A stretch of DNA of 64,000 bases from Musa acuminata AAA Group (Eukaryota > Streptophyta > Magnoliopsida > Zingiberales > Musaceae): assembly GCF_036884655.1 (NCBI RefSeq), contig NC_088340.1, positions 30,318,001 to 30,382,000 on the forward strand, in the 5' to 3' direction. The translations under genes and the position numbers were made by a program. Below the pieces are notes generated by a model. It ran no database searches. It was not told the DNA's origin and saw nothing but the letters and a program-made list of their open reading frames with translations. Positions 3,518 to 52,866 of this stretch are shown piece after piece. The first letter of the stretch is position 1. Each line of letters starts with the position of its first letter.

Positions 3518-4021
3518 CTATAAAAAAGGATGATTTTTTGATACCCAATTGACCTTGGGTGCCTCAAAAATCGATCTATATTGCTTATCATGTTGCATGG
3601 AATTCTTTACGGTTCCTTTAGGAACCCAAATCAATTTGTTTGGACTATACTTTTTAAATGGACAATGATAAGCTTTATGTCCATGTTTGTAACAAAAGTT
3701 GCATTTATTTTGGGGCGAAATATGCAAGATAGGGCCTTTAATGGAAGTGGTTGGATTTTGATGAGAGCTACTCACAAATCCGATTCCACTTCTTTTATGA
3801 ACGTGACCCTTATTGGTCAGGATCATGTTCAATGACTTGCTACCATCTTTAAATTTCTTCAAGGTATCTTTGAGTAGCAAGTTCTCCTTTTGGAGTATTT
3901 CTAAATTATGACATTTCGTATATGGAGTTAAACTATTATTATGCTCAATTTTTAATTTACCAAAATTGCTAACAAGAGATTCATGCTCCTTTTTTAATGA
4001 TTTATATTTTTTACATTAGAT
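3518..4021 (-). pseudogene. S1 gag C-terminus with second zinc knuckle
   Basis: Frame 3880 to 3518 carries a CX2CX4HX4C knuckle (CNFCYKHGHKAYHC) followed by LIWVPKGT, as in S4 (CNFCCKSGHIAYKC at about 28470). The coiled coil-like region to its right is cut near 4016-4021, where the sequence changes abruptly to an LTR end. Gag coats the genomic RNA; the N-terminal part is absent here. Confidence 0.8.
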
Positions 4022-4114
4022 AAAAACTATCGAAGCATCCTACGTCACTCAAAACACAGATTAAATCATAAACACATATCAAGCGGTTTCATCATCAAAA
4101 TATGAGATTCAACA
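4022..4114 (-). repeat. S2 3' LTR remnant
   Basis: About 93 bp matching the end of other SIRE LTRs in the window (compare 21976-22054): a CGAAGCATCC stretch, the CATCATCAAAATA stretch and the terminal TTCAACA. The outer part of the LTR is missing and the sequence abuts gag of S1. Confidence 0.85.
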
Positions 4115-4127
4115 ATCTCCCCCTTTT
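4115..4127 (-). other. S2 polypurine tract
   Basis: Reads as a run of A followed by GGGGGAGAT on the minus strand, directly before the LTR. It is the expected primer for second-strand cDNA synthesis. The same tract abuts the 3' LTR in S3, S4 and S6. Confidence 0.85.
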
Positions 4128-7100
4128 TTATGATGACAACCACTTGATGACGGAGTTAACCTTAACTCCCGGAGTTTAAACAAACTCCTCCTATCAATAT
4201 GCCATGTTGATCGAACATTAAATTCAAGCCAAATTCAAGTCATTGCAAATATTCATCATGAATATTTACAACAAGTCATCATGCATAACATGATCATACT
4301 TCTCCCCCTTTGTCATCAACAAAAAGGAGAAGTGTCACTTTCTATGTGTTTGAGAGATGAATTCAACTTATTGCATGAAAAACATAATATCAAGTTTTAT
4401 CATCATGCAATTTGTAAGCTTGAAAATTTTGCAAATGCTACATCATGCAGGCTAGCAAAAATTTAGCAAGTGCTATATCACATTAGAATATGCAAGCTAT
4501 CAAGTTTTACATATTCAAGATAGTAAAATAGCATGTCCTACTTTACAACATTTAATAACATTTTAGAACATGCAAGCTTGCAGTTTTAAGATGTTCAAAG
4601 AGCAACTCTTGCTTCTTGAAATATGCAAGTTGCAAGCTATCAAATTTTGCTTCCTTTGCAATGTTTGAGCTTGCAATTTTGCTTCCATTGCAAAGTGCAA
4701 AGTGCAAGTTTAGCATGTTTAGTATCTTGAGATAGTAACTGTTTGCTTCTCTTTAGACTACAAGCTAGCAATTTTTATGATATGCAAGTTTTACTACATA
4801 CAAGATAGCAAAAATTTCGAAAGCAAATGCAAGATAGCTTTCTTGTGTAAGCTCATGATTCTTGCTTCCTATTTGCTTCCCAGTTGTAAGTTTTGCTTCT
4901 TGAGATAGGCAAGATAGCACATTTGCTTGAGATTACAAGATAGCATTTCTTGCTTTTGAGATGAGCAAGCTAATAAGTTTTGCCCCATTTTGCGATGTAT
5001 ACGTTTGTAATTTTTTGCTTCTCTTGTCTTGTGCAAGCTAGCTATCTCCCCCTTTGTCATTGTCAAAAAGAAGGGAAGACCCTTTACATCGATTATGACA
5101 AAGGTAAGTATCAATCTTATTTGTGCATCATTATATTTTCGAATTAAAACATGCTCATTTTCAAAAACCTTATATTTCATTCATGCACGATATTGAATAA
5201 ATCAATCAACATTATGAGCATATCATACATGATACTAAAATTTTTAACTATTTATTAACATTTTGATCATGATACCAAAAATTCATCATTTAGAGCATTC
5301 ATGATACAAAACATTAAATCAACATTTATAATACATCATTTTAGCAACAACTCATAGCATTTTAAATCATGATTCACATCATATATAATACATCACATCA
5401 TAATTAAAAAGCACAAGTATTGCATGCATCATTGCAAATTATAAATGTTTCATATTATGATGGTATCAATTTGTCAAATTTCATCCTACCATGATCATAA
5501 CTTTTTTTCATTTTATCATTGTAAACAAGAAAGAATAAGGGAAGAATAAAATAGTACAAAATATTTCAATTATTTCAAGGCATACAAGCCATAAATCCAA
5601 TGACATCATGTCATGAAAGATAAGACCTCTTGAATTACAAAATACATTATTCATTTTATCAAATCTCTTTTTTTTATAAATAACAAAAATTGTAGGTGTA
5701 CAAAGAAGATATTGTGATTAAAAAAGAATCTCAAGTAGTAAATCCAAGAAATCAATATCATAATTTGAATACAAACTCATTCAAATTCAAATCGTCAAAT
5801 TCATCAAAATCTCAACATTACTTTCAAGAGATTCAAAATGGTATACATAGATTTATCATAATAATCATCAAGATCAATAAGATAGAGAAAAATAATTTTT
5901 CAAGGAAAAAATATTTTCCTCTTTTTAGTTGTTTCAATTCATATGATTTTATTTCATGTATGCCAAATAAAAACATGTATCATGTTTAAAACCAAAGGTG
6001 TAAGATTTATTACAACAAAGATCAATAAGGAACTTTTATTATGGTAAAAATCAATAATCCGTAAATCGCAAGATTCATCATGCGTAATTTCAAAATTTAT
6101 TAAGCATGATCATTATGCACGACACTAAAACATGGTTTTAAAATGTTTAATATTTTCATTAATAATTTCATCATTATTCATCATCATATTTTCAAATTCG
6201 AACATGCACAATTTCAAAACTATATCTTTCATTTTTCATGTATGATACAAATAACACAATCATCATTATGAGCATATTATATATGATATTCAAGCATTCA
6301 TGATATATCATTTTGGCAACATGATCATAGCTTTTCAAATGATAGTATCTAAATGTCAAAGTTCATTACATCCTTTCATGCATGATCATTAACTTCTCAT
6401 TTGTATTTCATACATTATTCAAAATATCAAGAGAATTTTGGTGATGAAATATACATTTCATGAATGCAAGAAATTTTACATAATAAAATTCAAGTCATAA
6501 ATTATCAAGATGTCGAGTAGCATATGTTAATTTGAATAAATCATTTTTAGTCAATACCAAGAAAAATCACATCATAAAAGAATTTTGATTCATGGAAAAA
6601 TTTCATGTATCGAGAAATCAAGATGATAATTTATAAAAAAAAATATTATAAGTTATATTCAAGAGAAAAATCATCATTCGTTTTCAACTCATTCAATTTG
6701 TCAAATCAATATCATGATTTTGATATAACTTATTTCAAATTCAAATCATCAAATCAAAATCATTTTCAAGATATTTATATAAATCAATAAGATAGAGAAA
6801 AATAATTTTCAAGAAAAATGCTTTTCTCTTTCTAGTTATTTAAATTCATGTCATTTATTTCATTTATGCTAGATAAATATGTGCATCAACATTTAGGATC
6901 GAAAAATAAATTTTGTCATAAAAACCATCAAGATCAATAAACCACAAAAATTATTATGTATAACTTTACAATCTCATGCATAAAATCATCAAATCATAGT
7001 ATCAAAATTTCAATATTTTCATTCCATCATTTTGCATTGGTTTCATTGAACATAATTTTGAATGATTCTTATAGATAACTAAAACTTCTTTAGTTTTAAT

Positions 7101-7456
7101 TTATGTGATTGACTTTATATTAGCATGCTCAAATTTTGTTCTTAAGTCAAAACCATACATCATGTTTGACAACCAAAGACATTGTTCGAAATAAAAAATC
7201 ATCAAGCCTTCCATGCAAAAGCCATGCATCATTATTAAGCATGATATTAAATTTCTCAACATTTTCATTAAGACATCAACATGGTTTCAATCAAAATCGT
7301 AAATCATCAAAATACACATTCTTACTTCTCAAGCACATACATAATATTTATATTTAACATTTTATTACATTTTCATTTTTAAACATTAAATTATTAAACA
7401 AGTAATTTTTAAAAAAATTAATCCTAAACTAAATTAAAAATAACTCATGAAAAGTA
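4128..7456 (-). other. S2 AT-rich non-coding internal region
   Basis: 3.3 kb between gag and the polypurine tract where full SIRE elements carry pol. No coding match in any frame. It resembles the same interval in S3 and S6: the purine-tract-like block TCTCCCCCTTTGTCAT recurs (about 4300 and 5046), and a degenerate GCAAG(C/A)TAGC motif recurs densely at 4430-5040. The rest (5180-7456) is rich in ATCATGATTT-like words. Confidence 0.75.
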
Positions 7457-8380
7457 TTATGTAATTTTGAAATAAATTAGGGGGATTTCGATTACCTCAT
7501 CATTGAAAGTGGTTAAGGCATAGTTTGCCAACTCGCCTTTCTTGATTTTCTCCTCATCTTCGGAGGAGCTTGATTCATCCCAATTTGTGTTTTTCTTCTT
7601 GCGTTCAAAGCAAATAGTTCTATTCTTTTTATTTTTTAATTTTTGTTTTATTTGTAGTTTAAGTTTACCATCACTGGAGCTTATGCTCGAGTAGTCTTCA
7701 TGTGTTCTATATCCCAAATCCTTCCTGTCCTTTGGAAGGTTGTTCTCGAGTTCCCTTTCTGTCATATTGTTCATTTCGTAGGTCATTAAAGACCCAATTA
7801 GTTCTTCGAGAGGAAATGTCTTAAGGTCCTTGGTCTCTTGAATAGCTGTAATTTTTGGATCCCAACTTTTTGGAAGGAATCTTAATATTTTAGTTACTCG
7901 TTCAAAGTTAGAAAAACTTTTACCAAGAGTTTTGAGTCTATTGATGACATCCATGAAACGGGTGTACATGTCTCCGATGAACTCACTTAGTTTTATTCGG
8001 AAAAGTTCGTAAGAGTGCATAAGAATGTTAATTTTAGACTCTTTCACTCGGCTAGTACCTTCATGAGTGACCTCAAGAGTTCTCCATATATCAAAAGTCG
8101 AATCACAAATCGAAACGCGATTAAATTCATTTTTTTCAAGTGCACAATATAAGACATTCATACCCTTTATGTTTAAAGCAAAAACTTTCTTCTCCGATTC
8201 ATCCCATACGCTCATCGGAAGAGAAGATTTTTGAAATCCATTTTCAACTTTGTGCCATAAATTCAAATCCAAAGAAAGTAAGAAAACTCTCATTCGAGTT
8301 TTCTAATAAGTGTAGTATGTCCCATTGAAAAAGGGAGGACGAATGAGAGAGCAACCCTCTTGAAGGCAGAAAAGAGCCAT
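7457..8380 (-). pseudogene. S2 Gag without zinc knuckle
   Basis: A 278-codon frame (8293 to 7457) is open, and the full Gag start lies at 8380 (MALFCLQEG). One TAG at 8303-8305 replaces the Trp of YTYWKTR. It matches the Copia Gag capsid domain: FDIWRTLEVTHEG, then MYTRF and LEELIGSLMTYEM. Where S4 has a CX2CX4HX4C knuckle, this frame runs from ICFERKKK straight to NWDESSSSEDEE, so the knuckle is deleted in frame. It ends IPLIYFKIT, as in S3 and S6 (IPLIYFEIT in S6). Capsid assembly is the likely role; RNA binding by a knuckle is not possible. Confidence 0.88.
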
Positions 8381-8430: not shown

Positions 8431-8949
8431 TGTTATGATCGGAGTGGCACTAAGAGGGGGGGGGCTGAATTAGTGCAACGGATTAAAACTTGTAAGTTTT
8501 AAAAATGATTTCTTAAATACGAGGAGATTTCGTTTCAATAGTAACTTGAGTAGATGAAAACCGAAAGCTAGCAGTAGTGTAAATAACAATTTCAGGAAAG
8601 TAAGAACTCACACATTCAAGGAACACACCAATTTAAAGTGGTTCGGTCAAAATGACCTACATCCACTTATGAAGCTTTCTTCGAAGAGGCTCCCAACTTC
8701 CACTAGCAAATCACTTTGAAGGGGAAGGACAAATACCCCTCTTACAACCTTTTACATTGGTTCACACTCTTATAAATTTTCAACGAGAAAGAAGGAGGTG
8801 AACACTCAAGCAATTGAAAACAAGACTTGCTAAAGACTTTGCTAAGGCTTTTTTTCTCAATCTATTGCTTCTAAAATGTTGTGTTCTCTACTAAGAATTG
8901 AGGGGTATTTATAGACCCTAAGAGGATTCAAATTTAGGCTCCAAATTTT
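8431..8949 (-). repeat. S2 5' LTR, segment 1 (U5/R end)
   Basis: Begins TGTTATGATC and includes the GCACTAA...TTAGTGC hairpin with a G run. TATTTATA (TATAAATA on the element strand) is near 8908. It is cut at 8949 by S3; ATTTT at 8945-8949 is the left target duplication of S3. Continuation is at 16395. Confidence 0.88.
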
Positions 8950-10969
8950 TGTTTGGATCGAGAGCACTAAGAGGGGGGGGTGAATTAGTGCAATGGAAAA
9001 CTTTCTACGATTAAAATCGAAAGCTGCGTTCGAACGATAAAAACAACTTCTGTATTAAAGTCAAACTATACAGGCAGTTTGCAGCTATGATGAAAACCAG
9101 AATATCAGCGCAAACTGAAATCCGACATTCGTACGAAGAAACTGGTTTACGTCTAAATGCTTATTCGTAAATCACTTGATTAGCTAAGACGCAGTTTAAG
9201 CAGGAGTATAAAGGCAGTGTGCAGTTATGGTAAAGCTCAAAACGTAAACGCAATCTGTAATATGATGATCATACGAAAAAGTAGGTTTACGTTTAAACAC
9301 AGATTTATGTCTGAACCTTGAAACTCGTTCGTAAAATCGCAGAGGGCAGTAAGCTATTGAGAAGTTTGCAGTGAAGATAAAATGCTCAAAGGAAATGCAA
9401 ACCGAGATTTAGAGTGGTTCGGTCAATCTTGACCTACTCCACTTTTGGCTTCCTCCACCGACGAGGTCACCGACATCAACTAGAGGCCTTCCTTCAATAG
9501 GCGAAGGCCAACCACCCTCTTACAGATTCACTCCTTTTGACGGGCTTAGGAGACAACCCTTACAGAAGTTTTCTCTCCTCTCTTTACAACTCAAACTTTG
9601 AAGAACAGAAAGAGGAGAACTAGCAGTTTTGAGCTCTAAGAACCATAGAAAGACAGCAAGATTTCGAGTGTATGTTCTTACTCTTTCAGTGCTGAATGGG
9701 TGGGGTATTTATAGGCCCCAACCTAGTTCAAATTTGGAGCTCAAATCTGTCAATTCCCGGAATTCCGGGATCAGGCGGTTGCACCTCCTGATTGGGGCGG
9801 TTGCATCGCCTAGCAGAGCTCGAAGACTAAGCCTCTAGGCGATGCCACCTCTGTTAGGGGCGGTTGCACCTCTCTGCTAGAGCTCGAAGACCGAGCTCAG
9901 GCGGTTGCACCGCCTAACTAGGGAGGTTGCACCGCCTGGCAGAGCTCGAAACTTGAGCTCTGACGGTGCTACCTCTTGAAAGAAGAGGTTGCACCGCCCA
10001 GTCTCGCTCAGAGACTGAGCCCGGGGCAGTGCCACCTCTTGGCTGGGGCGGTTGCACCGCCCAGTCTCGCTGGGAGACATAGCCTGGGCGGTGCTACCTC
10101 CTGGCTTGGGCGGTTGCACCTCCCAGAGTAATCAAGGTCCGAATGGGTTAATCCATTCGGTCCAATTTGATTCTTTCTGGGGCCCAATTGCCCCAAGATT
10201 AAGTTAATGGGATCACCTCCCATTTCTAACTTAATCAATGTGCTAACTACGATTATTTCCTAAGACATATTCTGCAGCTTGCTCCGGTGCGTCAATCGCT
10301 TCTTCCGGCGAACTTCCGTCGATCATCCGATGAACCCTCGGTGATCCTCCTGCGGACTTCCGGCAAACTCCTGGACTTGCGACGATCCACTTGGCAAGTT
10401 CCGACGAGCTCCTTTGGCAAGCTTCTGGACTTCTCGGATTTGTTCCCGCAGAACCTCCGACGATTGTCCGAACTTCCGTCGAGCTCTTGAACTCCCAACG
10501 TGATCATTTTCATGACTCTGGCATAACTCCTATTGCATGTCTTTCTTCCATCATAGTTAATCCTGCACACTCAAAACAAAAACTTCGATCAAGACAATTA
10601 ATCCTAAGCAATTAACCAAGTTGTTCGGCATTTCATTGGTCCCTCGACGCTTCGTCCGATTCTTCGGCGCATCATCCTTTCCTGCAGCCTATTGCCCAAT
10701 CGGCCAGTTGACTCCGCAACTCCGATATCCTTGGCACAATACCCGCTCTTCTTGGCCCGATGCCCGAGTCCACGGCCCGAAGCCTTCTGTCGATACGTCG
10801 ACCGATCCACCGGCCCGACGTCCAATCTTCTAACATGTTCCTCCGGCACAACATGATATTCCTGCTTTAATTGTCTCATCTTAATCAAAGCATCCTGCGT
10901 CACTCAAAACGCAGATTAATTCACAAACATACATCAAGTGGTTTCATCATCAAAATACGAGATTCAATA
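8950..10969 (-). repeat. S3 3' LTR
   Basis: 2020 bp, starts TGTTTGGATC and ends TTCAATA (terminal CA mutated). It holds the GCACTAA/TTAGTGC hairpin (about 8963-8990), TATTTATA near 9704-9711, an array of GGCGGT...ACCGCC palindromes (about 9773-10125), the CCGAATGG...CCATTCGG hairpin (about 10139) and a stretch of TTCCGRCGA-like units (10270-10480). Apparent reading frames here are by-products of the GC-rich repeats. Confidence 0.92.
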
Positions 10970-10985
10970 ATCTCCCCCTTTTTGA
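10970..10985 (-). other. S3 polypurine tract
   Basis: The minus strand reads AAAAAGGGGGAGAT directly before the LTR, as in S2, S4 and S6. Confidence 0.88.
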
Positions 10986-13322
10986 TGATGACAACCACCT
11001 GATGACGGAGTTAACCTTAACTCCCGAAGTTTAAACAAACTCCCCCTATCAATATGCCATATTGATAAAACCTTGAATTCAAACTGAATTCAAGTCATTG
11101 CAATATTCATCATGAATACTTGCAACACGTCATCATGAACTTATGCATAAACTTATGCATAACATCATACTTCTCCCCCTTTGTCATCAACAAAAAGGAG
11201 AAGTACCACAATCAAGCGTTTGTGATATTGGTTCAACTTATTGCATGAAAAACATAATATCTATTGTTATCATCATGCAAGTTTGCTATCATCAAATGGT
11301 AAGATATCAACATGTAAAATTACGATTCAAGTTATTGATATCTTAACATGATATGACATTCATAGCACCTATTCATATGAATGCTGCTTTTGATATCTCA
11401 TCATAATATGGCATTCATAACATCTATTCATATTCTTCAAATATGGCACTCATAGTATCAATTATATATTTCTCCCCCTTTGTCATTAACAACACGGAGA
11501 ACGATATAAGCAAATTTTAAATATAAGTGCGATGCCATAAGTTGGTTCATGTCATTTTCCAACAGTGAGTGATAGGATACCAATTATGCAAACATCTCGA
11601 GGAAAACATGACATGGAGATCACTCACTCATTTTCCAACAGTGAGTGATAGGATACCAATTATTTCAATCAAAAAAGTCACGTTTAATTATTCAGACATA
11701 TTTTTGCCATAGTTTTTCAAATATAATCATGAAGATAAGGCATGCTCATCATCATGGTAGTATGATAGCAAGTTTACCATATACAAGCTAGCAAAATATT
11801 TCTACATTTTAAGGCCCGCAAGCTAGCAATTTTGAGATGTTCCAGAAAGCAACTCTTGCTTCTTGAAATATAAGTTTTGCTAGATGTGCAAGTTAACTTT
11901 TTGCTTCTTGAGATAGGCAAGATAGCATTCCTTGGTGATGTTCAATATAGCTAAGTTCTACATCATGCAAGCTAGTGAATTTTATAACATTTTAGAACAT
12001 GCATAATCACCAAAGCATCATAAATTTTAATGATGTGCAAAATTACAAATTTTGCATGATTGCATTTGTGTGTCTTGAGATTTGCAAGATAGCACTTCTT
12101 GGTGATGTTCAAGATAGCAATTTCTTCTCTTTTGAGAAGTGCAAATTTTGCTTTCTTCTTGAATTGTGCAAGCTAGCTATCTCCCCTTTTGTCATTGTCA
12201 AAAAAAAGGGAAAAAACCCTTTACATTAATTTTCAAATCATGACAAAGGTTAGTATCAATCTCATTTGTGCATCATTATATTTTCAAATTAAAACATGCA
12301 CATTTTCAAAACATATAAACTCATTATTATATGCATGATTCCAAATCATCATTCATATTATTTCAATCATTGTTTCACTCATCACTATAGCTTATCATGC
12401 ATAATATGTAAAACCATTTAACATGATATAAACATTTATTTATTTAATTTTTTAAGCATTCATGATACATCATACATTATCATAATAAAAAGCATATGCA
12501 TCATTCCAAATCATAAATATTTCAAATCATCATGGTATTAATTTGTCACATTGCATCCTACCATGCATGATCGAAGCTTCTCATTTGCCTATATCAAAAT
12601 AAATTCATGAATATCTCATGCATTCATATCATCACTTGAGGAATATTGAAAAAGAAATAATTGGGTGATGAGATAAATATTTCATGAATACAAAGAATTG
12701 TATAAAAATCATATCATGAATACAAGGAATACAAGTCACAATCATTCAAGAGAAAAATCAAGATCATGATTTTGATAAAACTCATTTCAAATTTAAATCA
12801 TCAAAATCATTTTTATGGCTCACAAAATTTATAACATAAATAGATTCATGATTTCATTGATAATATATTTTACCCCTTTTTAAGTGTTTCATTTTAAGTG
12901 ATCGATTTCATGTTAGCATGCCTTTTCATTTATGAAAACATGCATCAATTTTTTAAAGCCACTGTTATTATTATGAAAATCGATAATCCATAAATATCAA
13001 GAATCATCATAATTTCAAAAATATATACTCATTAATCATAACTTCAAATTAAACATGATTTCATATACTCAAAATCGAGAAATAACAATGGAAGTCAACA
13101 TGATACACATTATTACTTCTCAACCACATATAGCATGATTTCATAAGATATTTTTAATCAAAATCATTTTGTTTATCATAAACATGCAATTTTCATGATT
13201 ATTTTCAAAATTACTAGAATGATAAGCATGATTCCTAATTTTTTGTATTTTCATTATAAAATTATTAAACATGCAATTTTCAAGAAAATTAAATAAAAAA
13301 GAAAAATGCATTATGAAAAGCA
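10986..13322 (-). other. S3 AT-rich non-coding internal region
   Basis: 2.3 kb without coding matches. It is colinear with 49531-52852 of S6 in opposite orientation, for example around 11930-12130 versus 51190-51420. It holds extra purine-tract-like blocks at about 11173, 11470 and 12179 and a perfect 35 bp direct repeat at 11553-11587 and 11629-11663. Confidence 0.78.
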
Positions 13323-14245
13323 TTATGTAATTTCAAAGTAAATTAAAGGCATTTTGATTACCTCAGCGTCGAAAGGCGTAAAGGCGTAGTTTGCCACCTC
13401 GCCTTTGTTGATTTTCTCCTCGTCTTCGGAGGAGCTCGATTCATCCCAATTTATGTTCTTCTTCTTGCGTTCAAAGCAAGTAGTTCCGTTCTTTTTACTT
13501 TTTAATTTTTGTTTCATTTGTTGTTTAAGTTCACCATCACTTGAGCTTATACTCGAGTGGTCTTCAAATGTTCTATGTCCCAAATCCTTCCTGTTCTTTG
13601 GAAGGTGGTTCTCATATTCTTCACGTGCATTGCACATCATTTCATATGTGATCAATGAACCAATTAGTTCTTCAAGTGGAAAAATATTTAAATCTTTTGT
13701 TTCTTGTAAAGCCATTACTTTTGAATCCCACTTCTTAGAAAGAGAACGCAAAATCTTGTTCACAAGTTCAGAATTCGAAAAACATTTGCCAAGAGCTCTT
13801 AAACCATTGACGACATTCGTAAAACGGGTGTACATGTCACCAATGGTTTCGCTTGGCTTCATTTGAAAAAGCTCGAAATCATGCAATAAAATATTAACTT
13901 TCGAGTCTTTGACTCTACTAGTTCTCTCGTGCGTGATTTCAAGAGTGCGCCAAATATCGAAAGCCGTTTCGCACAAAGAAACCCGATTGAACTCATTTTT
14001 GTCCAAAGCGCAAAATAAGACATTCATAGCCTTTGCGTTTAAAGAAAAATGCTTCTTCTCTAAATCCGACCATTCGTTCATCGGTTTAGAGTGAAGATGA
14101 AAGCCGTTTTCAATGATATTCCATAAATCCAAATTCATAGAAATCAAGAAAACTCTCATTCAAGTTTTCCAATAAGTGTAGTCCAATCCGTTAAACAACG
14201 GTGGACGAAAAAGTGAAAAGCCCTCTTGAAAGCCATGAAGACCAT
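13323..14245 (-). pseudogene. S3 Gag without zinc knuckle
   Basis: A 278-codon frame (14159 to 13323) is open. The Gag start at 14245 is separated from it by a 1-base deletion just after the ATG (relative to S6) and by a TGA at 14160-14162, where S6 has CGA. Capsid motifs FDIWRTLEITHE, MYTRF and LEELIGSLITYEM are intact. The knuckle is missing: TTCFERKKK joins NWDESSSSEDEE, as in S2. The frame ends MPLIYFEIT. The same knuckle-free architecture in three copies argues for an established family and not independent decay. Confidence 0.88.
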
Positions 14246-14279
14246 TTCTCTCAGGTGTAAATCCGAAATGAGAAAAACC

Positions 14280-14295
14280 GGGCTCTGATACCAAC
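14280..14295 (-). other. S3 primer binding site
   Basis: The minus strand reads TTGGTATCAGAGCCC next to the 5' LTR, with the initiator tRNA-Met complement intact. Confidence 0.92.
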
Positions 14296-16389
14296 TGTAG
14301 GATCGAGAGCACTAAGAGGGGGGGGGGGGGGTGAATTAGTGCAGCGGAAAACTTTCTGCGATTAAAATCGAAAGCTGCGTTCGAACGATAAAAACAACTT
14401 CTATATGAAATTTGATACTAAGCAAGGTTAAAGTCAAACTATGCAGGCAGTTTGCAACTATGATGAAAATCAGAATATCGGCGCAAACTGAAATCCGACG
14501 TTCGTACGAAGAAACTGATTTACGTCTAAATGCTGATTCATAAATCACTTGATTAGATAAGACGCAGTTTAAGCAGGAGTATAAAGGCAGTGTGCAGTTA
14601 TGGTAAAGCTCAAAACGTAAACGCAATCTGCAATATGATGATCATACGAAAAAGCATATTTACGTCTAAACGCAGATTTACGTCTAAATGCATATTTACA
14701 TCTAAACGCAGATTTACGTCTGAACCTTGAAACTCGTTCGTAAAATCGCAGAGGGCAGTAAGCTATTGAGAAGTTTGCAGTGAAGGTAAAATGCTCAAAG
14801 GAAATGCAAACAGAGATTTAGAGTGGTTCGGTCAATCTTGACCTACTCCACTTTTGGCTTCCTCCACCGACGAAGTCACCAACATCAACTAGAGGCCTTC
14901 CTTCAATAGGCGAAGGCCAACCACCCTCTTACAGATTCACTCCTTTTGACAGGCTTAGGAGACAACCCTTACAGAAGTTTTCTCTCCTCTCTTTACAACT
15001 CAAACTTTGAAGAACAGAAAGAGGAGAACTAGCAGTTTTGAGCTCTAAGAACCACAGAAAGACAGCAAGATTTCGAGTGTGTGTTCTTACTCTTTTAGTG
15101 CTGAATGGGTGGGGTATTTATAGGTCCCAACCCAGTTCAAATTTGGAGCTCAAATCTGTCAATTCCCGGAATTCCGGGATCAGGCGGTTGCACCTCTTGA
15201 CTAGGGCGGTTGCACCGCTTGGTAGAGCTCGAAGACTGAGCCTCTGGGCGGTGCCACCTCTGTCAGGGGCGGTTGCACCTCTCTGCTAGAGCTCGAAGAC
15301 CGAGCTCAGGCGGTTGCACCGCCTGACTGGGGAGGTTGCACCACCTGGCAGAGCTCGAAACTTGAGCTCTAGCGGTGCTACCTCTTGACAGAAGAGGTTG
15401 CACCGCCCAGTCTCGCACGGAGACTGAGCCCGGGGCGGTGCCACCTCTTGGCTGGGGCGGTTGCACTGCCCAGTCTCGCTGGGAGACATAGCCTGGGCGG
15501 TGCTACCTCCTGGCTTGGGTGGTTGCACCTCCCACAGCAATCAGGGTCCGAATGGGTTAATCCATTCGGCCCAATTTGATTCTTTCAAGGGCCCAATTGC
15601 CCCAAGATTATGCTAATGGGATCACCTCCCATTTCTAACTTAATCAATATGCTAACTATGATTATTTCCTAAGACATATTCTGCAGCTTGCTCCGGTGCG
15701 TCAATCGCTTCTTCCGGCGAGTTTCCGGCGAACTTCCGTCGATCATCCGACGAACCCTCGGTGATCCTCCTACGGACTTCCGGCAAACTCCTGGACTTGC
15801 GACGATCCACTTGGCAAGTTCCGACGAGCTCCTTTGGCAAGCTTCTGGACTTCTCGGATTTGTTCCCGCAGAACCTCCGATGACTGTCCGAACTTCCATC
15901 GAGCTCTTGAACTCCCAACGTGATCATTGTCATGACTCCGGCGCAACTCCTGCTGCATGTCTTTCTTCCATCATAGTTAATCCTGCACACTCAAAACAAA
16001 AACTTCGATCGAGACAATTAATCCTAAGCAATTAACCAAGTTGTCCGGCATGTCATTGGTCTCTCGACGCTTCGTCCGATTCTTCGGCGCATCGTCCTTT
16101 CTTGCAGCCTATTGCCCAATCGGCCGGTTGACTCCGCAACTCCGATATCCTTGGCACAATACCCGCTCTTCTTGGCCCGATGCCCAAGTCCACGGCCCGA
16201 AGCCTTCTGTCGATACGTCGACCGATCCACCGGCCCGACGTCCAATCTTCTGACATGTTCCTCCGGCACAACATGATATTCCTGCTTTAATTGTCTCATT
16301 CTGATCAAAGCATCCTGCGTCACTCAAAACGCAGATTAATTCACAAACATACATCAAGTGGTTTCATCATCAAAATACGAGATTCAACA
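14296..16389 (-). repeat. S3 5' LTR
   Basis: 2094 bp, starts TGTAGGATC and ends TTCAACA. Same landmarks as the 3' copy: hairpin with a run of about 14 G (14305-14345), TATTTATA near 15116, GC palindrome array (about 15182-15535) and the CCGAATGG hairpin (about 15549). It is longer than the 3' LTR, partly because of four 18 bp units at 14654-14725. Confidence 0.92.
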
Positions 16390-16394: not shown

Positions 16395-16769
16395 AAATTC
16401 TCTTGGGTTCTCGATACTGGCGGTGCCACCGCCTGTTAGTGTCTGACATAGACAGTGTACTAGCGGTGCCACTACCGGACCTCTCAAGTGTTGGGCGGTG
16501 CCACCGCCCTGTCCGGCGGTACCACCGCCTAATCCTCAGGTTTTGGGCGGTGCCACCGCCTAGTCCGGCGGTTCCACCGCCTAGTCCGGCGGTTCCACCG
16601 CCCGATCCTACGGGTTACTAGATGGACTTCAAATCTGGCCCAAACTAGGTAATATCGGGCCTAGTTGACCCATAACCAGGATATAGGATTATCCATTAAT
16701 CCTAACCCTAATTACATGCAAACTACACAACTGAAAACATAGTCCTAAGCAAGTTTTCAACCGACAAAC
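16395..16769 (-). repeat. S2 5' LTR, segment 2
   Basis: Continuation of the LTR after S3. It has an array of GGCGGTGCCACCGCC and GGCGGTTCCACCGCC palindromes at about 16419-16605, upstream of the TATA box on the element strand. It is cut at 16769 by L1. Confidence 0.85.
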
Positions 16770-21335: not shown

Positions 21336-22054
21336 AAATGTCGAGTCTCCTTCCGGCAAACTTTTCGACGATCTTCTGGTGGACTTCCTATACACTCTCG
21401 GATATCTTCTGGTGGACTCCCAACAGGCTCCTAATCTTGTGGCGAGTTCAACGAGTAGCCGAGACTTCTCGGTGATCTCCGTGAACCTCCGACGATCTCT
21501 TCGGTGGACTTCTGAAAACTCCGACAAGTCCCCGATTTCTTCTCGGTTGGTTCCGACAGCATCTCCGACGAATCTTTGGACTCTCGAATACACATCGAAC
21601 TTGACTCCGGTAGAGTTGCTTTATGTCTTCAAGCTATCGTAGTTAATCCTGCATATGTAAAACAAAAGTTCGATCTAGCCAATTACTCCTAAGCAATTAA
21701 TCAAGTTGTTCGGCATGTCATTGGTCTCTCGACACTTCGTTCGATTCTTCGGCGCATCATCCTCTCTTGTGGCCTATTGCCTAATCGGCCAGTTGACTCC
21801 ATATCTCCAATATCCTTGGCGCAATACCCGCTCTTCTTGGCTCGATGCCCGAATCCATGGCCCGAAGCCTTCTATCGATACGTCGACCGATCCACTGGCC
21901 CGACATCCAATCTTCTGATATGTTCCTCCGGCACAACATGATTTTCCTGCTTTAATTGTCTCATCCTAATCGAAGCATCCTGTGTCACTCAAAACGTAAA
22001 TTAAATCATAAACACATATCAAGTGGTTTCATCATCAAAATATGAGATTCAACA
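21336..22054 (-). repeat. S2 5' LTR, segment 3 (U3 end)
   Basis: Resumes after L1 with TTCCGGCAAACTT-like units and ends ATGAGATTCAACA, the start of U3 on the element strand (TGTTGAATCTC). TTATA follows, the presumed target duplication. Confidence 0.87.
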
Positions 22055-23097: not shown

Positions 23098-24314
23098 TGT
23101 TAGGATCAGAGCGGCACTAAGAGGGGGGGGGGGGGGTGAATTAGTGCAACGGCTTAAAACGTTGGTTTCGACAAATATTTCGTACGATAAAAATCAGAAT
23201 CGGAAGTGCTTAACTTGAAAGAGTATTCGCAAAGTTGTGCAGTAAATGTAATGAGGAAATAAAGCAAGTAAGAGGGTTTGCAGTAATGTAAATAGCAGTA
23301 ATGAAATGCAAACCAGAGATTATGCCGTTTTTAAAGTGGTTCGGTCAAGTGACCTACATCCACTTGCGAGGCCCCTCTTCGATGAGGCTCCCACCTTCCA
23401 CTAGCAAATCTCTTGAAAGGGAAGGGTAAATACCCCTCTTACAACTTTTACAAGCGGTTCACTCTCTTACAGATTTTCAGCAAGAAAGAAGGAGGTGAAC
23501 ACTAGCAAATTGAAAATAAGAAAGGCAAAGACTCTTCTAAGACTTTTCTCTCAATCACTTGCTGCTCAAAAAGTTATCTTCTCAGCTGAGACTTGAGGGG
23601 TATTTATAGGTCTCAACAGGATTCAAATTTGGGCTCCAAAAAATTTGAATTCTCTTATGTTCCCGATGCTGGCGGTGTCACCGCCCAGCCAAGCGGTGCC
23701 ACCGCCCAGCGCTCGGGTGCTAGACGGTGCAACCACCCAGCCCAGGAGGTGTCACCGCCCAGCTCTCGGGTGCTGGGTGGTGCCACCGCCTGGCTCTCTG
23801 ATTCACTGGTTTAACTTAATTTTAGCCCAAACCAAATCTGACTTTGGGCCCAGTTGGCCCCTAACCAGGATATAGGATTATCTCTTAATCCTAATCCTAA
23901 TTACAAGTGAACTACATAACAAAAAAAACATCCTAAGCAAGTTTTTAACCGCGAACGTCGAGTCTTGTTCCGGCGAGCTTTCCGACGAACTTCTTCCGAC
24001 GGATTCCCTACAAGCTCCCGATCTTGTGATAACTTTAACGAGTAGCTGAGCCTTCTCGGTGATCTCCATGAACCTCCGATGATGTCTTTGACGAACTTCC
24101 GAAAATTTTGATAGGTTCCCGATTTCTTCTCGGTTGGTTCCGGCAGCATCTCCGACGATTCTTCGGACTCTTAAATGTCCATCGATCTTGACTCCGATAT
24201 TCTTGCTTTGTGTTTTTTGGTTATCGTAGTTAATCCTGCACACTTAACTTAATAATATGGATTAGATCAATTAACCCATCAATTGATTTTATCATCAAAA
24301 TCCGAGATTCAACA
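23098..24314 (-). repeat. S4 3' LTR
   Basis: Starts TGTTAGGATC, ends TTCAACA. Landmarks: GCACTAA/TTAGTGC hairpin with 14 G (about 23116-23149), TATTTATA near 23601, GC palindromes (about 23670-23790) and TTCCGRCGA-like units (23960-24160). Confidence 0.95.
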
Positions 24315-24330
24315 ATCTCCCCCTTTTTGA
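24315..24330 (-). other. S4 polypurine tract
   Basis: AAAAAGGGGGAGAT on the minus strand, immediately before the LTR. A second purine block of the same kind is near 24750, inside the 3' non-coding region. Confidence 0.9.
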
Positions 24331-25264
24331 TGATGACAATCAATTGATGACGGAGTTAAACATTACTCCCCCTATCTATATGCCATATTATGAGAAGATG
24401 AAAACACTTGAATTCCATCCATAGAATTCAAGCATAAACTGATAAGTTCTAACCGTAGAACTTATCGTTATTCTCATTAAGCAATAGTAAATACAAAACC
24501 TCGATGAAAATTATTTTCAAGTAGAATGATAAGAGACAATTTTTACTACGATAGGAGATAAAGATTTTCAACATGAATTTCATGATATAAATGTAAGGCA
24601 AGCTTTCAATATGATTAATCAATCTTGCGATATTCTCAAGGATTTTGCAAGGCATTTTGCAAGGCATATAAGACATTCATATCACACATGCTTTTGAAAT
24701 TCATATAAGTCATGCTATCAAAATGGTACAAGTCATCACTTTTCTCCCCCTTTGTCATCAACAAAAAGGGAATGAGACTTGAAGAATATAACTTGTGATT
24801 ATAATATCAGGAATTCAGCATTGATCATACGAAAATCCATCATCCAAAATTAAGTATGCTAAAATATTTACGCAGAGTTCACCTAAAGGAAAATTCAGCA
24901 TTCATCCATTTTATCAAATCTCTTTTTTCTATAAATAACACAAATTGTAGGTGTGCAAGGAAGAGATTGTGATTAAAAAATATCAAGTAGTAACTCCAAT
25001 AAGTCAAGATCATAATTCGAATACAAACTCATTTAAATTTACATCGTCAAATTGAAACTCATAATCAAGCCATCAAAATCAATTTCGAGATTCATAAAAT
25101 ATCATAAAATCATTAATCTTGATCAGATGGGAGCGGTGTTTGACTCAAGATAGGATAAGATAATTTAACATGTCATTTAGAATCGAAAGAGAAGGATCAG
25201 ATTCATCGAGGAACAGAGAGAGGATGAAAAACTTTACGGAAAATCCATTCAAACAAGTTTATTT
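24331..25264 (-). other. S4 3' non-coding region
   Basis: About 930 bp, AT-rich, between the RNase H stop and the polypurine tract. Some SIRE elements carry an envelope-like frame here; none was seen. It shares words with the AT-rich DNA of the gag-only elements, such as ATAAATAACACAAATTGTAG (24934-24953), matched near 5676-5695 in S2. Confidence 0.7.
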
Positions 25265-26667
25265 TTAGGGATAATTTAACATACCTAATTCCCTTCTAAT
25301 GAATTCAAATTGGTCTTCGTTCAAAGCTTTTGTAAATATATCTGCTAATTGATGCTTTGTGTCAATGAATTCTAGAACAACATCATTGTTAAGGACATGA
25401 TCGCGTATGAAATGATGCCTAACGTTGATGTGCTTAGTTCTAGAGTGCTGAATTGGATTTTTAGTAAGACATATGGCACTAGTATTATCACATTTTATGG
25501 GAATGTTTTTAAAGTGAATTCCATAGTCTTCTAATGTATTTTTCATCCAAATAACTTGTGCACAACATGCACTTGTAGCAATGTATTCGGCTTCCACCGT
25601 AGATAGTGCAACTGAATTTTGTTTCTTGGAAGTCCAAGAAACAAGTGCATGCCCTAAAAATTGGCATGTTCCGGATGTACTTTTTCTATCTATCCTACAT
25701 CCGCCAAAATCGACATCTGCATAAGCTATTAGATCAAATTTTTTAAATTTTGGATACCACAATCCTAAATTTGGAGTTCCTTTAAGATACCTAAATATTT
25801 TTTTTAACACTCTTAAGATGAGATAATTTAGGATTAGATTGAAACCTAGCGCAAAGTTCTACACTAAACATAATATCTGATTTAGTCGCGGTGAGGTAAA
25901 GTAGACTACCTATCATTCCCCTATATGTTTTTGATCGAAATTTCTACTATTTTCATCCATATCTAACTTAGTCGCAGTACTCATAGGGGTGTTTATTGCT
26001 TTTGAATTATCCATGTTAAATCGTTTTAACAATTCTAATGTATATTTGGATTGGTTAAGAAATATACCATCACTAAGTTGTTTGATTTGTAATCCTAAAA
26101 AAAAAGTTAATTCACCCATTAAACTCATTTCAAATTCATGACTCATACATTTGGCAAATGATTCATATAGTGATTCATCCGAAGAGCCAAAAATAATATC
26201 GTCAACATAAAATTGCACAATAAGAAAATTATTTTCAAAATGTTTAATAAACAATGTAGTATCAACCTTTCATAAGAAAGGTTTAAAATAAGAAAGGAAC
26301 TAAGCCTTTCATACCAAGCTCTAGGAGCTTGTTTCAAGCCATAGAGAGCTTTAGTCAATTTGAATACATGATTAGGAAGAAGAGAATTTTCAAATCCGGG
26401 AGGTTGTTCGACATATACTTCTTCGGAAATAAAACTATTCAAGAAAGCACTTTTAATATCCATTTGAAATAGTTTAAAATTATTACTACTAGCATAGGCA
26501 AGGAGCATCCTTATGGCTTCTAATCGAGCCACGGGGGCAAAGGTTTCTTCGTAATCGATACCTTCTTCTTGGTTGAAACCTTTGGCCACTAATCTAGCCT
26601 TGTTTCTAACCACGAACCACGATACCATTTTCATCTTGCTTGTTTCTAAAGACCCATTTAGTACCAA
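25265..26667 (-). pseudogene. S4 reverse transcriptase and RNase H, broken by frameshifts
   Basis: Three frames cover the region. RT N-terminus (26667-26143) has [30 protein letters not shown] and [17 protein letters not shown] palm (26254-25913) has YVDDIIFGS, so the catalytic pair is intact. RNase H (25810-25265) has KSTSGTCQFLG, SKKQNSVALSTVEAEYI and CDNTSAICL. RNase H ends ELGMLNYP. A short tandem duplication of ACCACGA near 26610-26625 shifts the frame between integrase and RT. The SIRE assignment rests on the RNase H motifs. Confidence 0.92.
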
Positions 26668-28249
26668 TGACTAAATGGTCACTAGGTCTAGGAACAAGCT
26701 TCCATACCTTATTCCTCTCAAATTGATTCAATTCCTCTTGCATTGCAATAACCCAAAAATCATCTTTTATGGCCTCGTCAATGCATTTAGGTTCAATTTG
26801 AGAAAGGAAGGTGGCATTAGCACAAAAATTCTTGAAAGAGGAACGAGTTTGAACCCCTTTTGATGTATCTCCTATAATTAGCTCATTTGGATGAGCATCT
26901 ATATACTTCCATTCCTTAGGTAAGGAAATTTCGGAAGAAGGTGCATCCAAGTTGCTATTTTGAGGAGGAGGTTCATTTAAATTTAAATTATCAAAACCAA
27001 GATCATCATCAAAATCATTTTTCTTTAAATTAGAAATTTCATTAAAAACTACATGAATAGACTCTTCTATTACTAACGTTCTTTTGTTAAAAACCCGAAA
27101 AACCTTAGAAACGGAAGAGTAACCAAGAAAGATGCCTTCATCGGATTTAGCATCAAATTTTCCTAAGACATCCCTTTCATTCAAAATAAAGCATTTACAA
27201 CCGAAAACTTTAAAATAGGAAATATTTGGTTTTTTGTTATTCCACAATTCATAGGGAGTTTTTTATAAGGATGGTCTTATTAGGACTCTATTCATGATGT
27301 AGCAAGCCGTATTTACGGCTTCGGCCAAAAAATACTTAGGTAAACTATGTTCATTTAACATAGTTCTTGCCATTTCTTGTAGGTTTCTATTTTTTCTTTC
27401 AACTACTCCATTTTGTTGGGGATTCCTCGGAGTGGAGAAGTTGTGATTGTATCCATTAACTTCACAAAAATTTTGAAAGTCACGGTTTTGAAATTCGCCA
27501 CCGTGATCACTCCAAATTGATGAAATCATGAAACCTTTTTCGTTTTGAGTGAGTTTACAAAATTTAGAGAAGCACTTGAAGCAATCACTTTTGTGGACTA
27601 AGAAATAGGTCCAAGTGTACCTAGTATAGTCATCTACAATTACAAACCCATATTTGCTTCCTCCTATACTTATTGTGTCAATTGGTCCGAATAAGTCCAA
27701 ATGGATCAATTGTAGTGGTCTAGTGGTGCTAATTTGATTTTTTGGTTTGAAACTAGTTTTTATTTGTTTACCTAGTTGACATGCATCACATACTTTGTCC
27801 TTAGTAAACTTCATATTTGGAATCCCTCGTACTAATTCTCTAGATGAGATCTTAGATATTAGTTTCATGCTTGCATGGCCTAATCTCCTATGCCAAAGCC
27901 AAGCATCATCATTTAGAGCGGAGAAGCACATTTCATTACTTAGTTCATCAAGGTTGATGGTGTAGACATTATTTTGTTTTAATGCAATCATAGTCAAGTT
28001 ATTGTTTGGTTTTTCGATAATACACATATTTGATTCGAATCTAACGATATAACATTTATCGCATAGTTGACTAATACTCAAGAGATTATGTTTCAATCCA
28101 TCAACTAGTAAAGCATCATCAATGGAAAAACTAAATTTGTTACCAATAGTTCCCTTGCCAATGATTTTGCCTTTGTTGTTGTCTCCGAAGGTGACGTACC
28201 CTTCTTCTTTGTTAGTGAGCATAGAAAAATGAGATGGATCTCCAGTCAT
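26606..28249 (-). pseudogene. S4 integrase
   Basis: The frame 28249-27263 holds the pre-integrase zinc motif (LWHRRLGH near residue 120, then CDAC) and the catalytic core: Asp in VDDYTRY, Asp in SDHGGEFQN, Glu in GVVERKN. A TAA near 27263 interrupts it, and the same frame resumes at 27247 with FKVFGCKCF and FLGYSSVSK, running to 26606 at the junction with RT. All three acidic residues are present, so the copy was active before the stop arose. Confidence 0.92.
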
Positions 28250-28335
28250 ATGTCTTGAGCATCCACTATCGAGATACCATCTCTTGCTCCTAGCTTGTGG
28301 GTTTGTCTAAAAAGAGGATGACTTTTAGGTACCTA
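27990..28335 (-). pseudogene. S4 aspartic protease region
   Basis: The Copia protease active site is readable as WYLDSGCSRHMTGD around 28240-28275 on the minus strand. A frameshift and a TAG at 28333-28335 separate it from gag. Downstream residues (VDGLKHNLLSISQL) are in the integrase frame, as is usual for a single gag-pol polyprotein. Confidence 0.82.
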
Positions 28336-29871
28336 TTTGATTTTGGGTGCCTTAAAAATTGATCCACTAACTTTGTTATTTATTATTGAATCCTTTATAG
28401 TTCCTTTAGGAACCCATATTAATTTTTGTGAACTAATTTTCCTAAATGAACATTTGTAGGCAATATGTCCGGATTTGCAACAGAAGTTGCATTTCATATA
28501 AGAGGAAACATATAATGTAGGTCCTTTTATGAAAGTGGTAGGATTTTGATGTAATCCTTTTACAAATCCAATTCCATTTCTATTTGCGACGTGACCCTTG
28601 TGTGCAAGGATCATATCTAATCCTTTGCTACCAACCTTAAACTTGTTTAAAGTTTCTTTAAGAAGCAAATTTTTATTTTTTATTGCTTCTAAATGCTCAC
28701 ACTTAGAGCATGGAGGAGTTTGAAGACTATCAAACTTATCTTGTAGCAAAGCATGCTCTTTCTTTAAGATACTTAACTTCTTGCTAACAGTTCTACATTC
28801 ATCAAATAATTCATGAAAAGCGATAGAGAGTTCTTCAAAAGATAAATCTTCATTAAATAAATCACATACCTCTTCTCCTAAAGCCATTAGCGCGTAATGA
28901 GCAACTTGCTCGATGTTGGACTCCTCTTCTTCGGACGCGCTTGAATCATCCCACGTTGCCTTGAGCGCCTTCTTCTTTGATGTTCTCTTTTTGGCTTGAG
29001 GACAAACGTTCTTGTAGTGTCCCGATTTTTTGCATTCATAGCAAATCACTTGGTCCTTCTTTTGTTCAAATTTATTTTTTGTATTATTTTTAAATTTGTT
29101 CTTTCTTAAATATTTTTTAAATTTTTGAGTCAAAAGTGCAATGTCATTGTCACTGTCCTCATCACTTGATGTTCCTTTCAAGTGGTCTTCTTATGATTTG
29201 AGTGTCATATCCTTCCTGTTCTTTGGAAGGGGGTTCTCGAGCTCGTCATGAGCTTGACATGTCATTTCGTAGGTCATTAGAGACCTAATGAGTTCTTCAA
29301 GAGGGAATGCTTTAAGGTCTTTGGCCTCTTGAATTACCGTAACTTTTGGATCCCAACTTTTAGGGAGGGATCTTAAGATTTTAGTTACTAGTTCAAATTT
29401 AGTAAAATCTTTACCAAGAGCTTTGAGTCCATTGATGACATCCGTAAATCGGGTGTATATGTCTCCGATGGACTCACTTGGTTTCATTCGGAAAAGTTCG
29501 TAAGAGTGCACAAGGATGTTGATTTTGGACTCTTTCACTCGGCTAGTGCCTTCATGAGTGACCTCAAGAGTTCTCCAAATATCAAAAGCCAAATCACAAA
29601 TTGAAACACGATTAAATTCATTTTTGTCTAGTGCGCAAAACAAGGCATTCATAGCCTTTGCATTTAAAGCAAAAACCTTCTTCTCCGATTCATTCCATTC
29701 GCTCATCGGAAGAGAAGATTTTTGAAATCCAATTTCAACAATAGTCCAAAGCTTGAAATCCATAGAAATGAGGAAGATCCTCATCTGAGTCTTCCAATAA
29801 GTATAATCCGACCCATTAGACAATGGTGGACGTGTGATAGAATGACCCTCATGCATGCTGGAGTAAGCCAT
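28333..29871 (-). pseudogene. S4 Gag with two zinc knuckles
   Basis: Starts at 29871 (MAYSSMHEGHSITRPPLSNG). Capsid domain motifs: YWKTQMRIFLIS, FDIWRTLEVTHEG, LEELIRSLMTYEM. An in-frame TAA at 29191-29193 interrupts it and reading resumes at once. A first CX2CX4HX4C knuckle (CYECKKSGHYKNVC) lies near 29030-29070 and a second (CNFCCKSGHIAYKC) near 28460-28500. The frame closes at a TAG at 28333. Gag packages element RNA into particles. This copy is the reference for what S2, S3 and S6 have lost. Confidence 0.92.
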
Positions 29872-29905
29872 CTCTCTTGGGTATTAAACCAAATATGAGA
29901 GTGAG

Positions 29906-29923
29906 CCTTGCTCTAATACCAAT
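29906..29923 (-). other. S4 primer binding site, mutated
   Basis: The minus strand reads AATTGGTATTAGAGCAAG beside the LTR. Relative to TTGGTATCAGAGC it has one transition, consistent with post-insertion decay. Confidence 0.85.
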
Positions 29924-48520: not shown

Positions 48521-48521
48521 A

Positions 48522-48535
48522 TTGGTATCAGAGCC
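48522..48535 (+). other. S6 primer binding site
   Basis: TTGGTATCAGAGCC right after the 5' LTR, complementary to initiator tRNA-Met. Confidence 0.94.
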
Positions 48536-48570
48536 CGGTATTTCGCATTTCGGATTTACACCCGAGAGAA

Positions 48571-52500: not shown

Positions 52501-52852
52501 TGAAATGTTTGCGTTATGATATCAAAAGCTTACATCGCAATTTTACATGTTGATATTTGATAATAGCAAACTTGCATGATGATAAAACTTGATATTAAGT
52601 TTTTCATGCAATGAGTTGAACCAATATCACAAACACTTGATTGTGGTACTTCTCCTTTTTGTTGATGACAAAGGGGGAGAAGTATGTTGATGACATGACA
52701 TGTTATGCATAAGTTTATGCATAAGTTTATGATGACATGTTGCTTGGACTTTTGAATCCAAGAGTTTCTATCAATATAGCATATTGATAGGGGGAGTTTG
52801 TTTAAACTCCGGGAGTTAAGGTTAACTCCGTCATCAAGTAGTTGTCATCATC
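49531..52852 (+). other. S6 AT-rich non-coding internal region
   Basis: 3.3 kb with no coding match. It is colinear with the S3 and S2 regions. Purine blocks of the form GACAAAGGGGGAG or variants occur near 51110, 52235 and 52670, ahead of the true tract. Confidence 0.78.
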
Positions 52853-52854
52853 AA

Positions 52855-52866
52855 ACAGGGGGAGAT
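52855..52866 (+). other. S6 polypurine tract
   Basis: ACAGGGGGAGAT directly before TGTTGAATC of the 3' LTR. Confidence 0.9.

What the first reader, a model, noticed from the sequence alone, without database searches (positions are those of the whole stretch)
13323..14245. A gag-only SIRE family whose Gag has lost its zinc knuckle
S2 (7457-8380), S3 (13323-14245) and S6 (48571-49530) each carry one Gag-like frame and no pol. Seen directly: the knuckle present in S4 is missing at the same place in all three, joining a lysine-rich run to NWDESSSS or KWDESSSF, and all end in PLIYFxIT. S2 and S3 keep a 278-codon open frame. LTRs, primer site and polypurine tract are normal. Inference: an established non-autonomous lineage that makes a capsid-only Gag and borrows enzymes (and perhaps nucleocapsid) from full elements, or that interferes with them.
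Basis: partly seen in the sequence, partly recalled or inferred. Interest (0 to 1): 0.75.

Follow-up and report, generated by a model that had tools for sequence, protein, structure and literature searches.

The report
Knuckle-less gag-only plant retrotransposon family
Three jumping elements in this banana-like plant DNA make only a shell protein that has lost its usual zinc RNA-binding finger; relatives suggest a long-lived family kept by selection, which probably moves with enzymes borrowed from complete elements.

Summary
S2, S3 and S6 are Sirevirus-type (SIRE/Maximus, Copia) elements with one gag frame and no pol: eight Pol/Gag queries by tblastn gave no hit in their interiors. In all three the same 20-codon in-frame gap removes the CCHC knuckle seen in S4/S5. 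Corrections: the 278-codon ORFs of S2 and S3 start at an internal Met, and both native frames are broken in the first ~30 codons; S2's LTRs are split and truncated. The lineage looks established: 19 of 120 listed homologues share the YFxIT end and none of these has a knuckle, including Musa textilis proteins. S3-S6 dN/dS is 0.34 (0.24-0.50); capsid 0.26, about 0.10 (0-0.26) after subtracting post-insertion decay. The Gag is not capsid-only: a basic, probably disordered ~100-aa tail follows the capsid. S2 is a mosaic: most of its LTR and capsid match autonomous-type S4, its tail and linker S3/S6. LTRs pair S3/S6 with S5 and S2 with S4. Verdict: a TR-GAG-type semi-autonomous Sirevirus lineage, unusual in knuckle loss and partner swapping. 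Trans-mobilisation, co-assembly and interference are untested inference.

The parts
8950..16389 (-). S3, complete gag-only Sirevirus-type element, flanked by the 5-bp duplication ATTTT (8945-8949 / 16390-16394), nested in the 5' LTR of S2
14296..16389 (-). S3 5' LTR (K2P 0.044 to the 3' LTR)
8950..10969 (-). S3 3' LTR
   Evidence: inner edge 10969 (one search printed 10968)
14282..14293 (-). S3 primer binding site TGGTATCAGAGC; junction one mismatch from the published Sirevirus 16-mer
13323..14245 (-). S3 gag region: native frame broken near its start; 278-codon ORF 13323-14159 from an internal Met; capsid PF14223, then basic knuckle-less tail ending PLIYFEIT
10970..13322 (-). S3 linker: AT-rich, no pol found, three GGGGGAGA polypurine tracts including the terminal one
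7457..8380 (-). S2 gag, one in-frame stop; capsid mostly S4-like, tail S3-like
8431..8949 (-). S2 5' LTR, inner piece, S4-like
16395..16769 (-). S2 5' LTR, middle piece, S4-like
21336..22054 (-). S2 5' LTR, outer piece: first ~420 nt S3/S6-like, then S4-like
4015..7456 (-). S2 linker, PPT and first ~90-100 nt of a truncated 3' LTR, abutting the S1 pol remnant
46552..54822 (+). S6, complete gag-only element, duplication CACTC; LTRs 46552-48520 and 52867-54822 (K2P 0.054)
48571..49530 (+). S6 gag, native-type start, four in-frame stops, knuckle-less tail ending PLIYFEIT
23098..31138 (-). S4, full element with knuckle Gag and pol (frames broken), duplication ATTTG; autonomous-type partner of S2 by LTR and capsid
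54893..60616 (-). S5, decayed element with knuckle Gag, INT and part of RT, duplication GAGTG; its LTR is the S3/S6 type

Best explanation
S3, S6 and S2 are members of an old gag-only (TR-GAG-type, semi-autonomous) Sirevirus lineage whose Gag has been kept by selection. Shown: the element is LTR - PBS - gag - long linker - PPT - LTR with no pol detected; its Gag keeps a copia-type capsid but has exchanged the CCHC knuckle for a basic, probably disordered tail with a conserved C-terminal YFxIT; dN/dS between copies is well below 1; and LTR plus capsid segments have been exchanged with an S4-type family. Inferred: the element is transcribed with its autonomous partner, its Gag co-assembles into shared particles and binds RNA through the basic tail, as Ty1 Gag does without a zinc finger, and protease, integrase and reverse transcriptase come in trans from the partner, which recognises the shared LTR ends, PBS and PPT. 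Copackaging of the two RNAs would also explain the LTR-capsid swaps by template switching.
For: No pol in 3 of 3 interiors. Same 20-codon gap at the knuckle in S2, S3 and S6. 19 of the 120 proteins listed end in YF[ED]IT and 0 of those 19 match the CCHC pattern; of the 45 further proteins, 39 match CCHC and 0 end in YFxIT. Capsid tree: 19 rows labelled gag-only form one side of a branch (99/95) against the 14 autonomous-type, outgroup, P0008 and S2 rows. S3-S6 dN/dS 0.34 (0.24-0.50); capsid 0.26 (0.15-0.44), 0.10 (0-0.26) after subtracting post-insertion decay; tail 0.43 (0.23-0.79). S2 breakpoint: 250 informative sites, 0 of 1000 permutations as strong. LTR pairing S3/S6 with S5 and S2 with S4. 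Sirevirus junction, poly-C signal and multiple PPTs. Capsid model confident over about residues 12-213, best Foldseek match Drosophila Copia capsid, then Copia and Ty1 CA-CTD chains above E 0.001; tail pLDDT mostly under 50. Precedents, passages read only: TR-GAG transposition in Arabidopsis ddm1 (PMC8704663), Quinta/Cereba (PMC11302176), Sabrina/WHAM/Wilma (PMC9744471).
Against: All three window copies are broken. S6 has four stops where its LTR clock predicts 0.61 (P 0.0015), and about the 3.3 expected if it had drifted neutrally since the S3-S6 split; S3's single stop is not significantly few on that yardstick either (P 0.14). The test that rejects one clade for all gag-only rows including P0008 and S2 is marginal (p-AU 0.043). 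Tree labels rest on text patterns: 16 of the 21 gag-only rows show the YFxIT end and only 2 of the 6 autonomous-type rows show the knuckle itself; the rest are truncated. Tail selection is weaker, with upper bounds 0.79-0.87. Database proteins came without DNA and most without organism, and ORF databases favour open frames. The basic patch exceeds composition-matched shuffles clearly in P0009 (0 of 2000 as high), modestly in P0001 (49 of 2000), not in P0008 (542 of 2000). S5 gave no match to the S4 RNase H ORF and S4 has a stop in gag, so neither partner copy is itself intact.
Confidence: 0.68

Rival explanations
1. Interference: the knuckle-less Gag enters partner particles, lowers their RNA packaging and acts as a self-encoded restriction factor, in outcome like Ty1 p22.
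For: Knuckle loss might weaken genome packaging: in Ty3 the zinc finger is critical for packaging (PMC4974528, passages). The capsid is conserved, so co-assembly is plausible. The C-lobe aligns with Ty1 p22 and Drt2 structures.
Against: The element has itself multiplied, so its own RNA has been packaged. The basic tail is kept. p22 is an N-terminally truncated Gag, unlike this full capsid. No functional data.
Confidence: 0.15
2. Neutral debris: one internally deleted copy amplified passively by an autonomous family, its gag not needed.
For: All window copies are broken; S6's four stops match the 3.3 expected for neutral drift since the S3-S6 split.
Against: dN/dS far below 1 between S3 and S6, which lie in one capsid subclade. 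Under neutrality over the S2-S3 capsid divergence, one stop or fewer has simulated probability 0.012. Proteins running from native-type Met to the shared end exist.
Confidence: 0.06
3. Repeated origin: gag-only copies arise again and again from autonomous elements, so the selection seen was on autonomous ancestors.
For: P0008 and S2 carry autonomous-type capsids. Mosaic tails are seen among database proteins.
Against: The same gap and tail ending recur in S2, S3 and S6, and their linkers share patches. 19 gag-only capsids form one clade. A search with the P0001 tail alone found 15 proteins, none showing a knuckle.
Confidence: 0.11

Closest known systems
[quoted passage not shown]
   Same: Two LTRs, one GAG ORF, no pol; one such element transposes in Arabidopsis ddm1 (AT5TE33540, PMC8704663, passages)
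   Different: That case encodes a 562-aa GAG; here about 305 aa without CCHC knuckle and with a conserved alternative C-terminus. The founding paper (Chaparro 2015, doi 10.1093/gbe/evv001) was not held, so its view of zinc knuckles is unread.
RLG_Quinta with RLG_Cereba (einkorn centromeres)
   Same: Gag-only partner with matched LTR ends and PBS, Gag variants exchanged by recombination (PMC11302176, passages)
   Different: Family there prefixed RLG (Gypsy), not Copia; carries a DUF1; the passages read do not discuss knuckle loss
RLG_Sabrina_SA and RLG_WHAM with RLG_Wilma (wheat)
   Same: Semi-autonomous families proposed to supply Gag to a cooperative complex (PMC9744471, passages)
   Different: Gypsy, keep a protease domain
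Ty1 Gag of yeast
   Same: RNA binding and chaperone activity in a basic C-terminal region with no zinc finger (PMC4974528, passages); C-lobe fold aligns
   Different: Autonomous element; phmmer of P0001 against PDB chains gave no Ty1 match
SIRE/Maximus elements of banana
   Same: Lineage that makes up almost 13% of the Musa acuminata genome (PMC2956553, passages)
   Different: Gag-only members are not described in the passages read

Membership tests
Sirevirus (Pseudoviridae, Copia) | 5' LTR/PBS junction CAATTGGTATCAGAGC | tested here: met
   0 mismatches in S2 and S6, 1 in S3, S4 and S5; motif from PMC2829016 passages
Sirevirus (Pseudoviridae, Copia) | Multiple PPT copies upstream of the 3' LTR, terminal one adjoining AT | tested here: met
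   GGGGGAGA 3, 3, 2 times in the S2, S3, S6 linkers; for the looser pattern (4, 5, 3 matches) shuffled linkers average 0.14-0.17, maximum 3-4 of 500 shuffles each
Sirevirus (Pseudoviridae, Copia) | Poly-C integrase signal near the LTR end | tested here: met
   C run present in 5 of 5, ending 22-25 nt from the LTR end
Sirevirus (Pseudoviridae, Copia) | CGG-CCG repeated motif boxes in the LTR | tested here: inconclusive
   tandem GGCGGTGCCACC-like units in the LTRs and 4-9 CGG..CCG matches per LTR, but no chance control was run
Sirevirus (Pseudoviridae, Copia) | copia-order pol (INT before RT) | tested here: not met
   not found in the gag-only copies; present in S4, with rve and RVT_2 in that order. 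Hence filed as non-autonomous derivatives, not as autonomous Sireviruses
TR-GAG | two LTRs, PBS, PPT, one GAG ORF, no pol | tested here: met
   S3 and S6; the gag frames of both copies carry lesions
TR-GAG | mobilised in trans | not testable with these tools
   only LTR pairing and shared termini seen
autonomous / non-autonomous partner pair | same PBS and LTR termini, shared LTR sequence | tested here: met
   S3/S6 with the S5 5' LTR 79-81% over 968-1120 nt (with the S5 3' LTR region 71-76%); S2 with S4 about 74% over 751 of 899 nt of the joined inner and middle S2 pieces; no S2-S3 match at E 1e-8, though one search shows 36-80-nt matches of S2 to S3/S6. The outer S2 piece is S3/S6-like for ~420 nt, so the pairing of S2 with S4 is not over the whole LTR
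Ty1 p22-type restriction factor | N-terminally truncated Gag that inhibits the partner | not tested
   no functional data; several database Gag proteins start at a native-type Met with a full capsid

The most novel reading that the evidence does not exclude
A knuckle-less Gag module (basic tail, YFxIT end and linker) behaves as a portable parasite or partner unit: it jumps by template switching onto the LTR and capsid of whichever autonomous Sirevirus family is active, so that its protein always co-assembles with current host particles while its missing zinc knuckle changes which RNA is packaged.
Probability: 0.25. Interest if true: 0.7.

Novelty: new variant of a known kind. Interest (0 to 1): 0.45.

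Why it matters
Gag-only plant elements are known, but why their Gag is kept is open. This family offers a selected Gag from which the standard RNA-packaging finger is gone, beside autonomous-type relatives with matching LTRs and capsids in the same 64 kb. That makes two questions directly testable: whether semi-autonomous Gag helps or poisons its partner, and whether non-autonomous elements follow their hosts by swapping capsid and LTR modules.

Tried and rejected
Rejected: that S2 and S3 share a common LTR as a tandem element. The 8950-10969 LTR is S3's 3' LTR, and S3 is nested in S2's 5' LTR with a 5-bp duplication. Rejected: that the linkers hide pol or another long gene; the longest stop-free stretch per frame is 42-103 codons in sense and 53-109 in antisense, and tblastn with pol queries was negative. 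Rejected: capsid-only Gag.

Counts and drops: of 165 proteins fetched plus four window gags, 87 passed the capsid finder and 43 rows entered the tree; tail labels came from text patterns, ten rows stayed unlabelled (one of them, P0025, does have the YFEIT end), and one intended outgroup (P0123) did not enter. S5 was used only for one in-frame stretch (227 codons) and was left out of the tree. Codons with stops or gaps were dropped from dN/dS. The post-insertion correction uses half of each LTR K2P and assumes equal neutral rates. One search failed to cut one LTR (S3 3') and that row is ignored.

Full report
What is there. The window is plant DNA full of SIRE-type Copia elements. S3 runs from 8950 to 16389 on the minus strand: 5' LTR 14296-16389, PBS at 14293, gag 13323-14245, an AT-rich linker, terminal PPT, 3' LTR 8950-10969, target duplication ATTTT. 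S6 (46552-54822, plus strand) has the same plan and the duplication CACTC. S2 has the same plan, but its 5' LTR is split twice, by S3 and by another LTR-flanked element at 16770-21335, and its 3' LTR is cut after about 90-100 nt where the S1 pol remnant begins. LTR divergence (K2P, gaps left out) is 0.044 for S3, 0.054 for S6 and 0.025 for S4.

No pol. Seven window ORFs of S4 and S1 and residues 301-521 of P0121 were run by tblastn against five interiors: 8 of 8 hit S4 (five of them are S4's own), 7 of 8 hit S5 (not the S4 RNase H ORF), and none hit S2, S3 or S6 at E 0.01.

The Gag. Pfam finds only Retrotran_gag_2 in the S2, S3 and S6 ORFs and in P0001 and P0016; P0121, the autonomous-type relative, also has zf-CCHC above its cut-off. 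S4's own knuckle ORF gave no Pfam family; its CCHC run is read from the translation. In the codon alignment the knuckle region of S4 and S5 is missing from S2, S3 and S6 by the same 20-codon gap; S2 and S3 keep a CFERKK run aligned to CYECKK, and S6 lacks six further codons there. The 278-codon ORFs of S2 and S3 are pieces of a roughly 307-codon gene broken near its start by different lesions; S6 has four stops.

An established lineage. A search with S3's ORF gave 169 proteins, 120 listed. Nineteen of the 120 end in YF[ED]IT and none of these matches the CCHC pattern; ten of the 120 match CCHC; the other 91 show neither, many being truncated. Of 45 further proteins from the alignment search, 39 match CCHC and none ends in YFxIT. 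Seven of the nineteen (P0001, P0004, P0006, P0008, P0009, P0024, P0025; 304-317 aa) also begin with a native-type Met. Seventeen of the 120 are named Musa textilis (counted by eye), among them P0016, P0024, P0025 and P0040 with knuckle-less tails; P0001-P0009 and P0014 carry no organism. A search with the P0001 tail alone gave 15 proteins, none showing a knuckle.

Selection. S3 and S6 lie in one gag-only capsid subclade (98/92), so their divergence is probably within the lineage. dS 0.352, dN 0.120, ratio 0.34 (bootstrap 0.24-0.50). Capsid alone 0.26 (0.15-0.44), falling to 0.10 (0-0.26) when 0.049 of neutral decay, from the two LTR clocks, is subtracted from both; tail 0.43 (0.23-0.79), corrected 0.37 (0.18-0.75); tail of S2 against S3 0.44 (0.23-0.87). 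Stops tell a mixed story. S3's one stop fits decay since insertion (0.51 expected). S6's four exceed the 0.61 expected since insertion (P 0.0015) and match the 3.3 expected under neutral drift since the S3-S6 split, so S6 may have been copied already broken, or its LTRs may under-date it; S3's one stop is not significantly below 3.3 (P 0.14). Over the deeper S2-S3 capsid divergence one stop or fewer is unlikely (P 0.012). The simulation is simple and ignores methylation bias beyond the transition ratio.

Mosaic S2. In codon columns 50-203 S2 matches S4 at 98 informative sites and S3 at 19; after column 220 it matches S3 at 74 and S4 at 9; the best breakpoint is column 215 and none of 1000 permutations is as strong. 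Columns 0-50 are mixed (25 S3-like, 16 S4-like). S2's LTR is S3/S6-like for its first ~420 nt and S4-like after that. Database protein P0008 (20 member sequences) is a second such recombinant by its sequence and falls with S4 and P0121 in the capsid tree (97/91); holding all gag-only rows together costs 24.4 log-likelihood units, p-AU 0.043, a marginal rejection. In that tree 16 of 21 gag-only rows show the YFxIT end and 2 of 6 autonomous-type rows show the knuckle; the others were labelled from the run before it.

Partners. S5, with a knuckle Gag, INT and part of RT, has S3/S6-type LTRs: 79-81% over 968-1120 nt from its 5' LTR, 71-76% from its 3' LTR region. S2's inner and middle LTR pieces match S4 (about 74% over 751 of 899 nt). 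S4 and S3/S6 share only pieces of up to 180 nt, S4 and S5 up to 268 nt. The LTR ends, the PBS (with one mismatch in S4 and S5) and, in the four copies printed, the PPT agree.

Place among known kinds. It meets the anatomy of TR-GAG and three published Sirevirus non-coding hallmarks; the LTR repeat boxes were seen without a control, and pol is absent. Gag-only partners with recombining Gag are described for Quinta, and Gag-supplying families for Sabrina and WHAM, in wheat. New here, as far as the ten searches listed in Tried and rejected go, are knuckle loss as a lineage trait in a Sirevirus and the exchange of LTR plus capsid segments with an autonomous-type family.

Noticed in passing
16770-21335: Separate LTR-flanked element (446-bp ends, 98.9% identical, PBS TGGTATCAGAGC at 17218) inserted in S2's 5' LTR; three ORFs overlapping it gave no Pfam match.
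   Followed up: partly
48571-49530: S6 gag has four stops where its LTR divergence predicts 0.61: mobilised when already defective, LTR gene conversion, or loss of constraint.
   Followed up: partly
4014-4029: Abrupt junction of the S1 pol remnant with the truncated S2 3' LTR.
   Followed up: no
36454-38002: GA-rich low-complexity stretch with long ORFs on both strands; the one ORF scanned (37502-38002) has no Pfam match.
   Followed up: no
34311-44040 and 60801-62839: Another repeat family in direct and inverted copies, about 71-83% alike.
   Followed up: no
22055-23097: S5/S3-type LTR fragment and a short gag-like match (22748-23089) between S2's LTR start and S4.
   Followed up: no
P0002, P0003, P0005, P0007: Database Gag tails carrying both tail types in tandem around a repeated LPKNRKDL-like run, as if by unequal exchange.
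   Followed up: no
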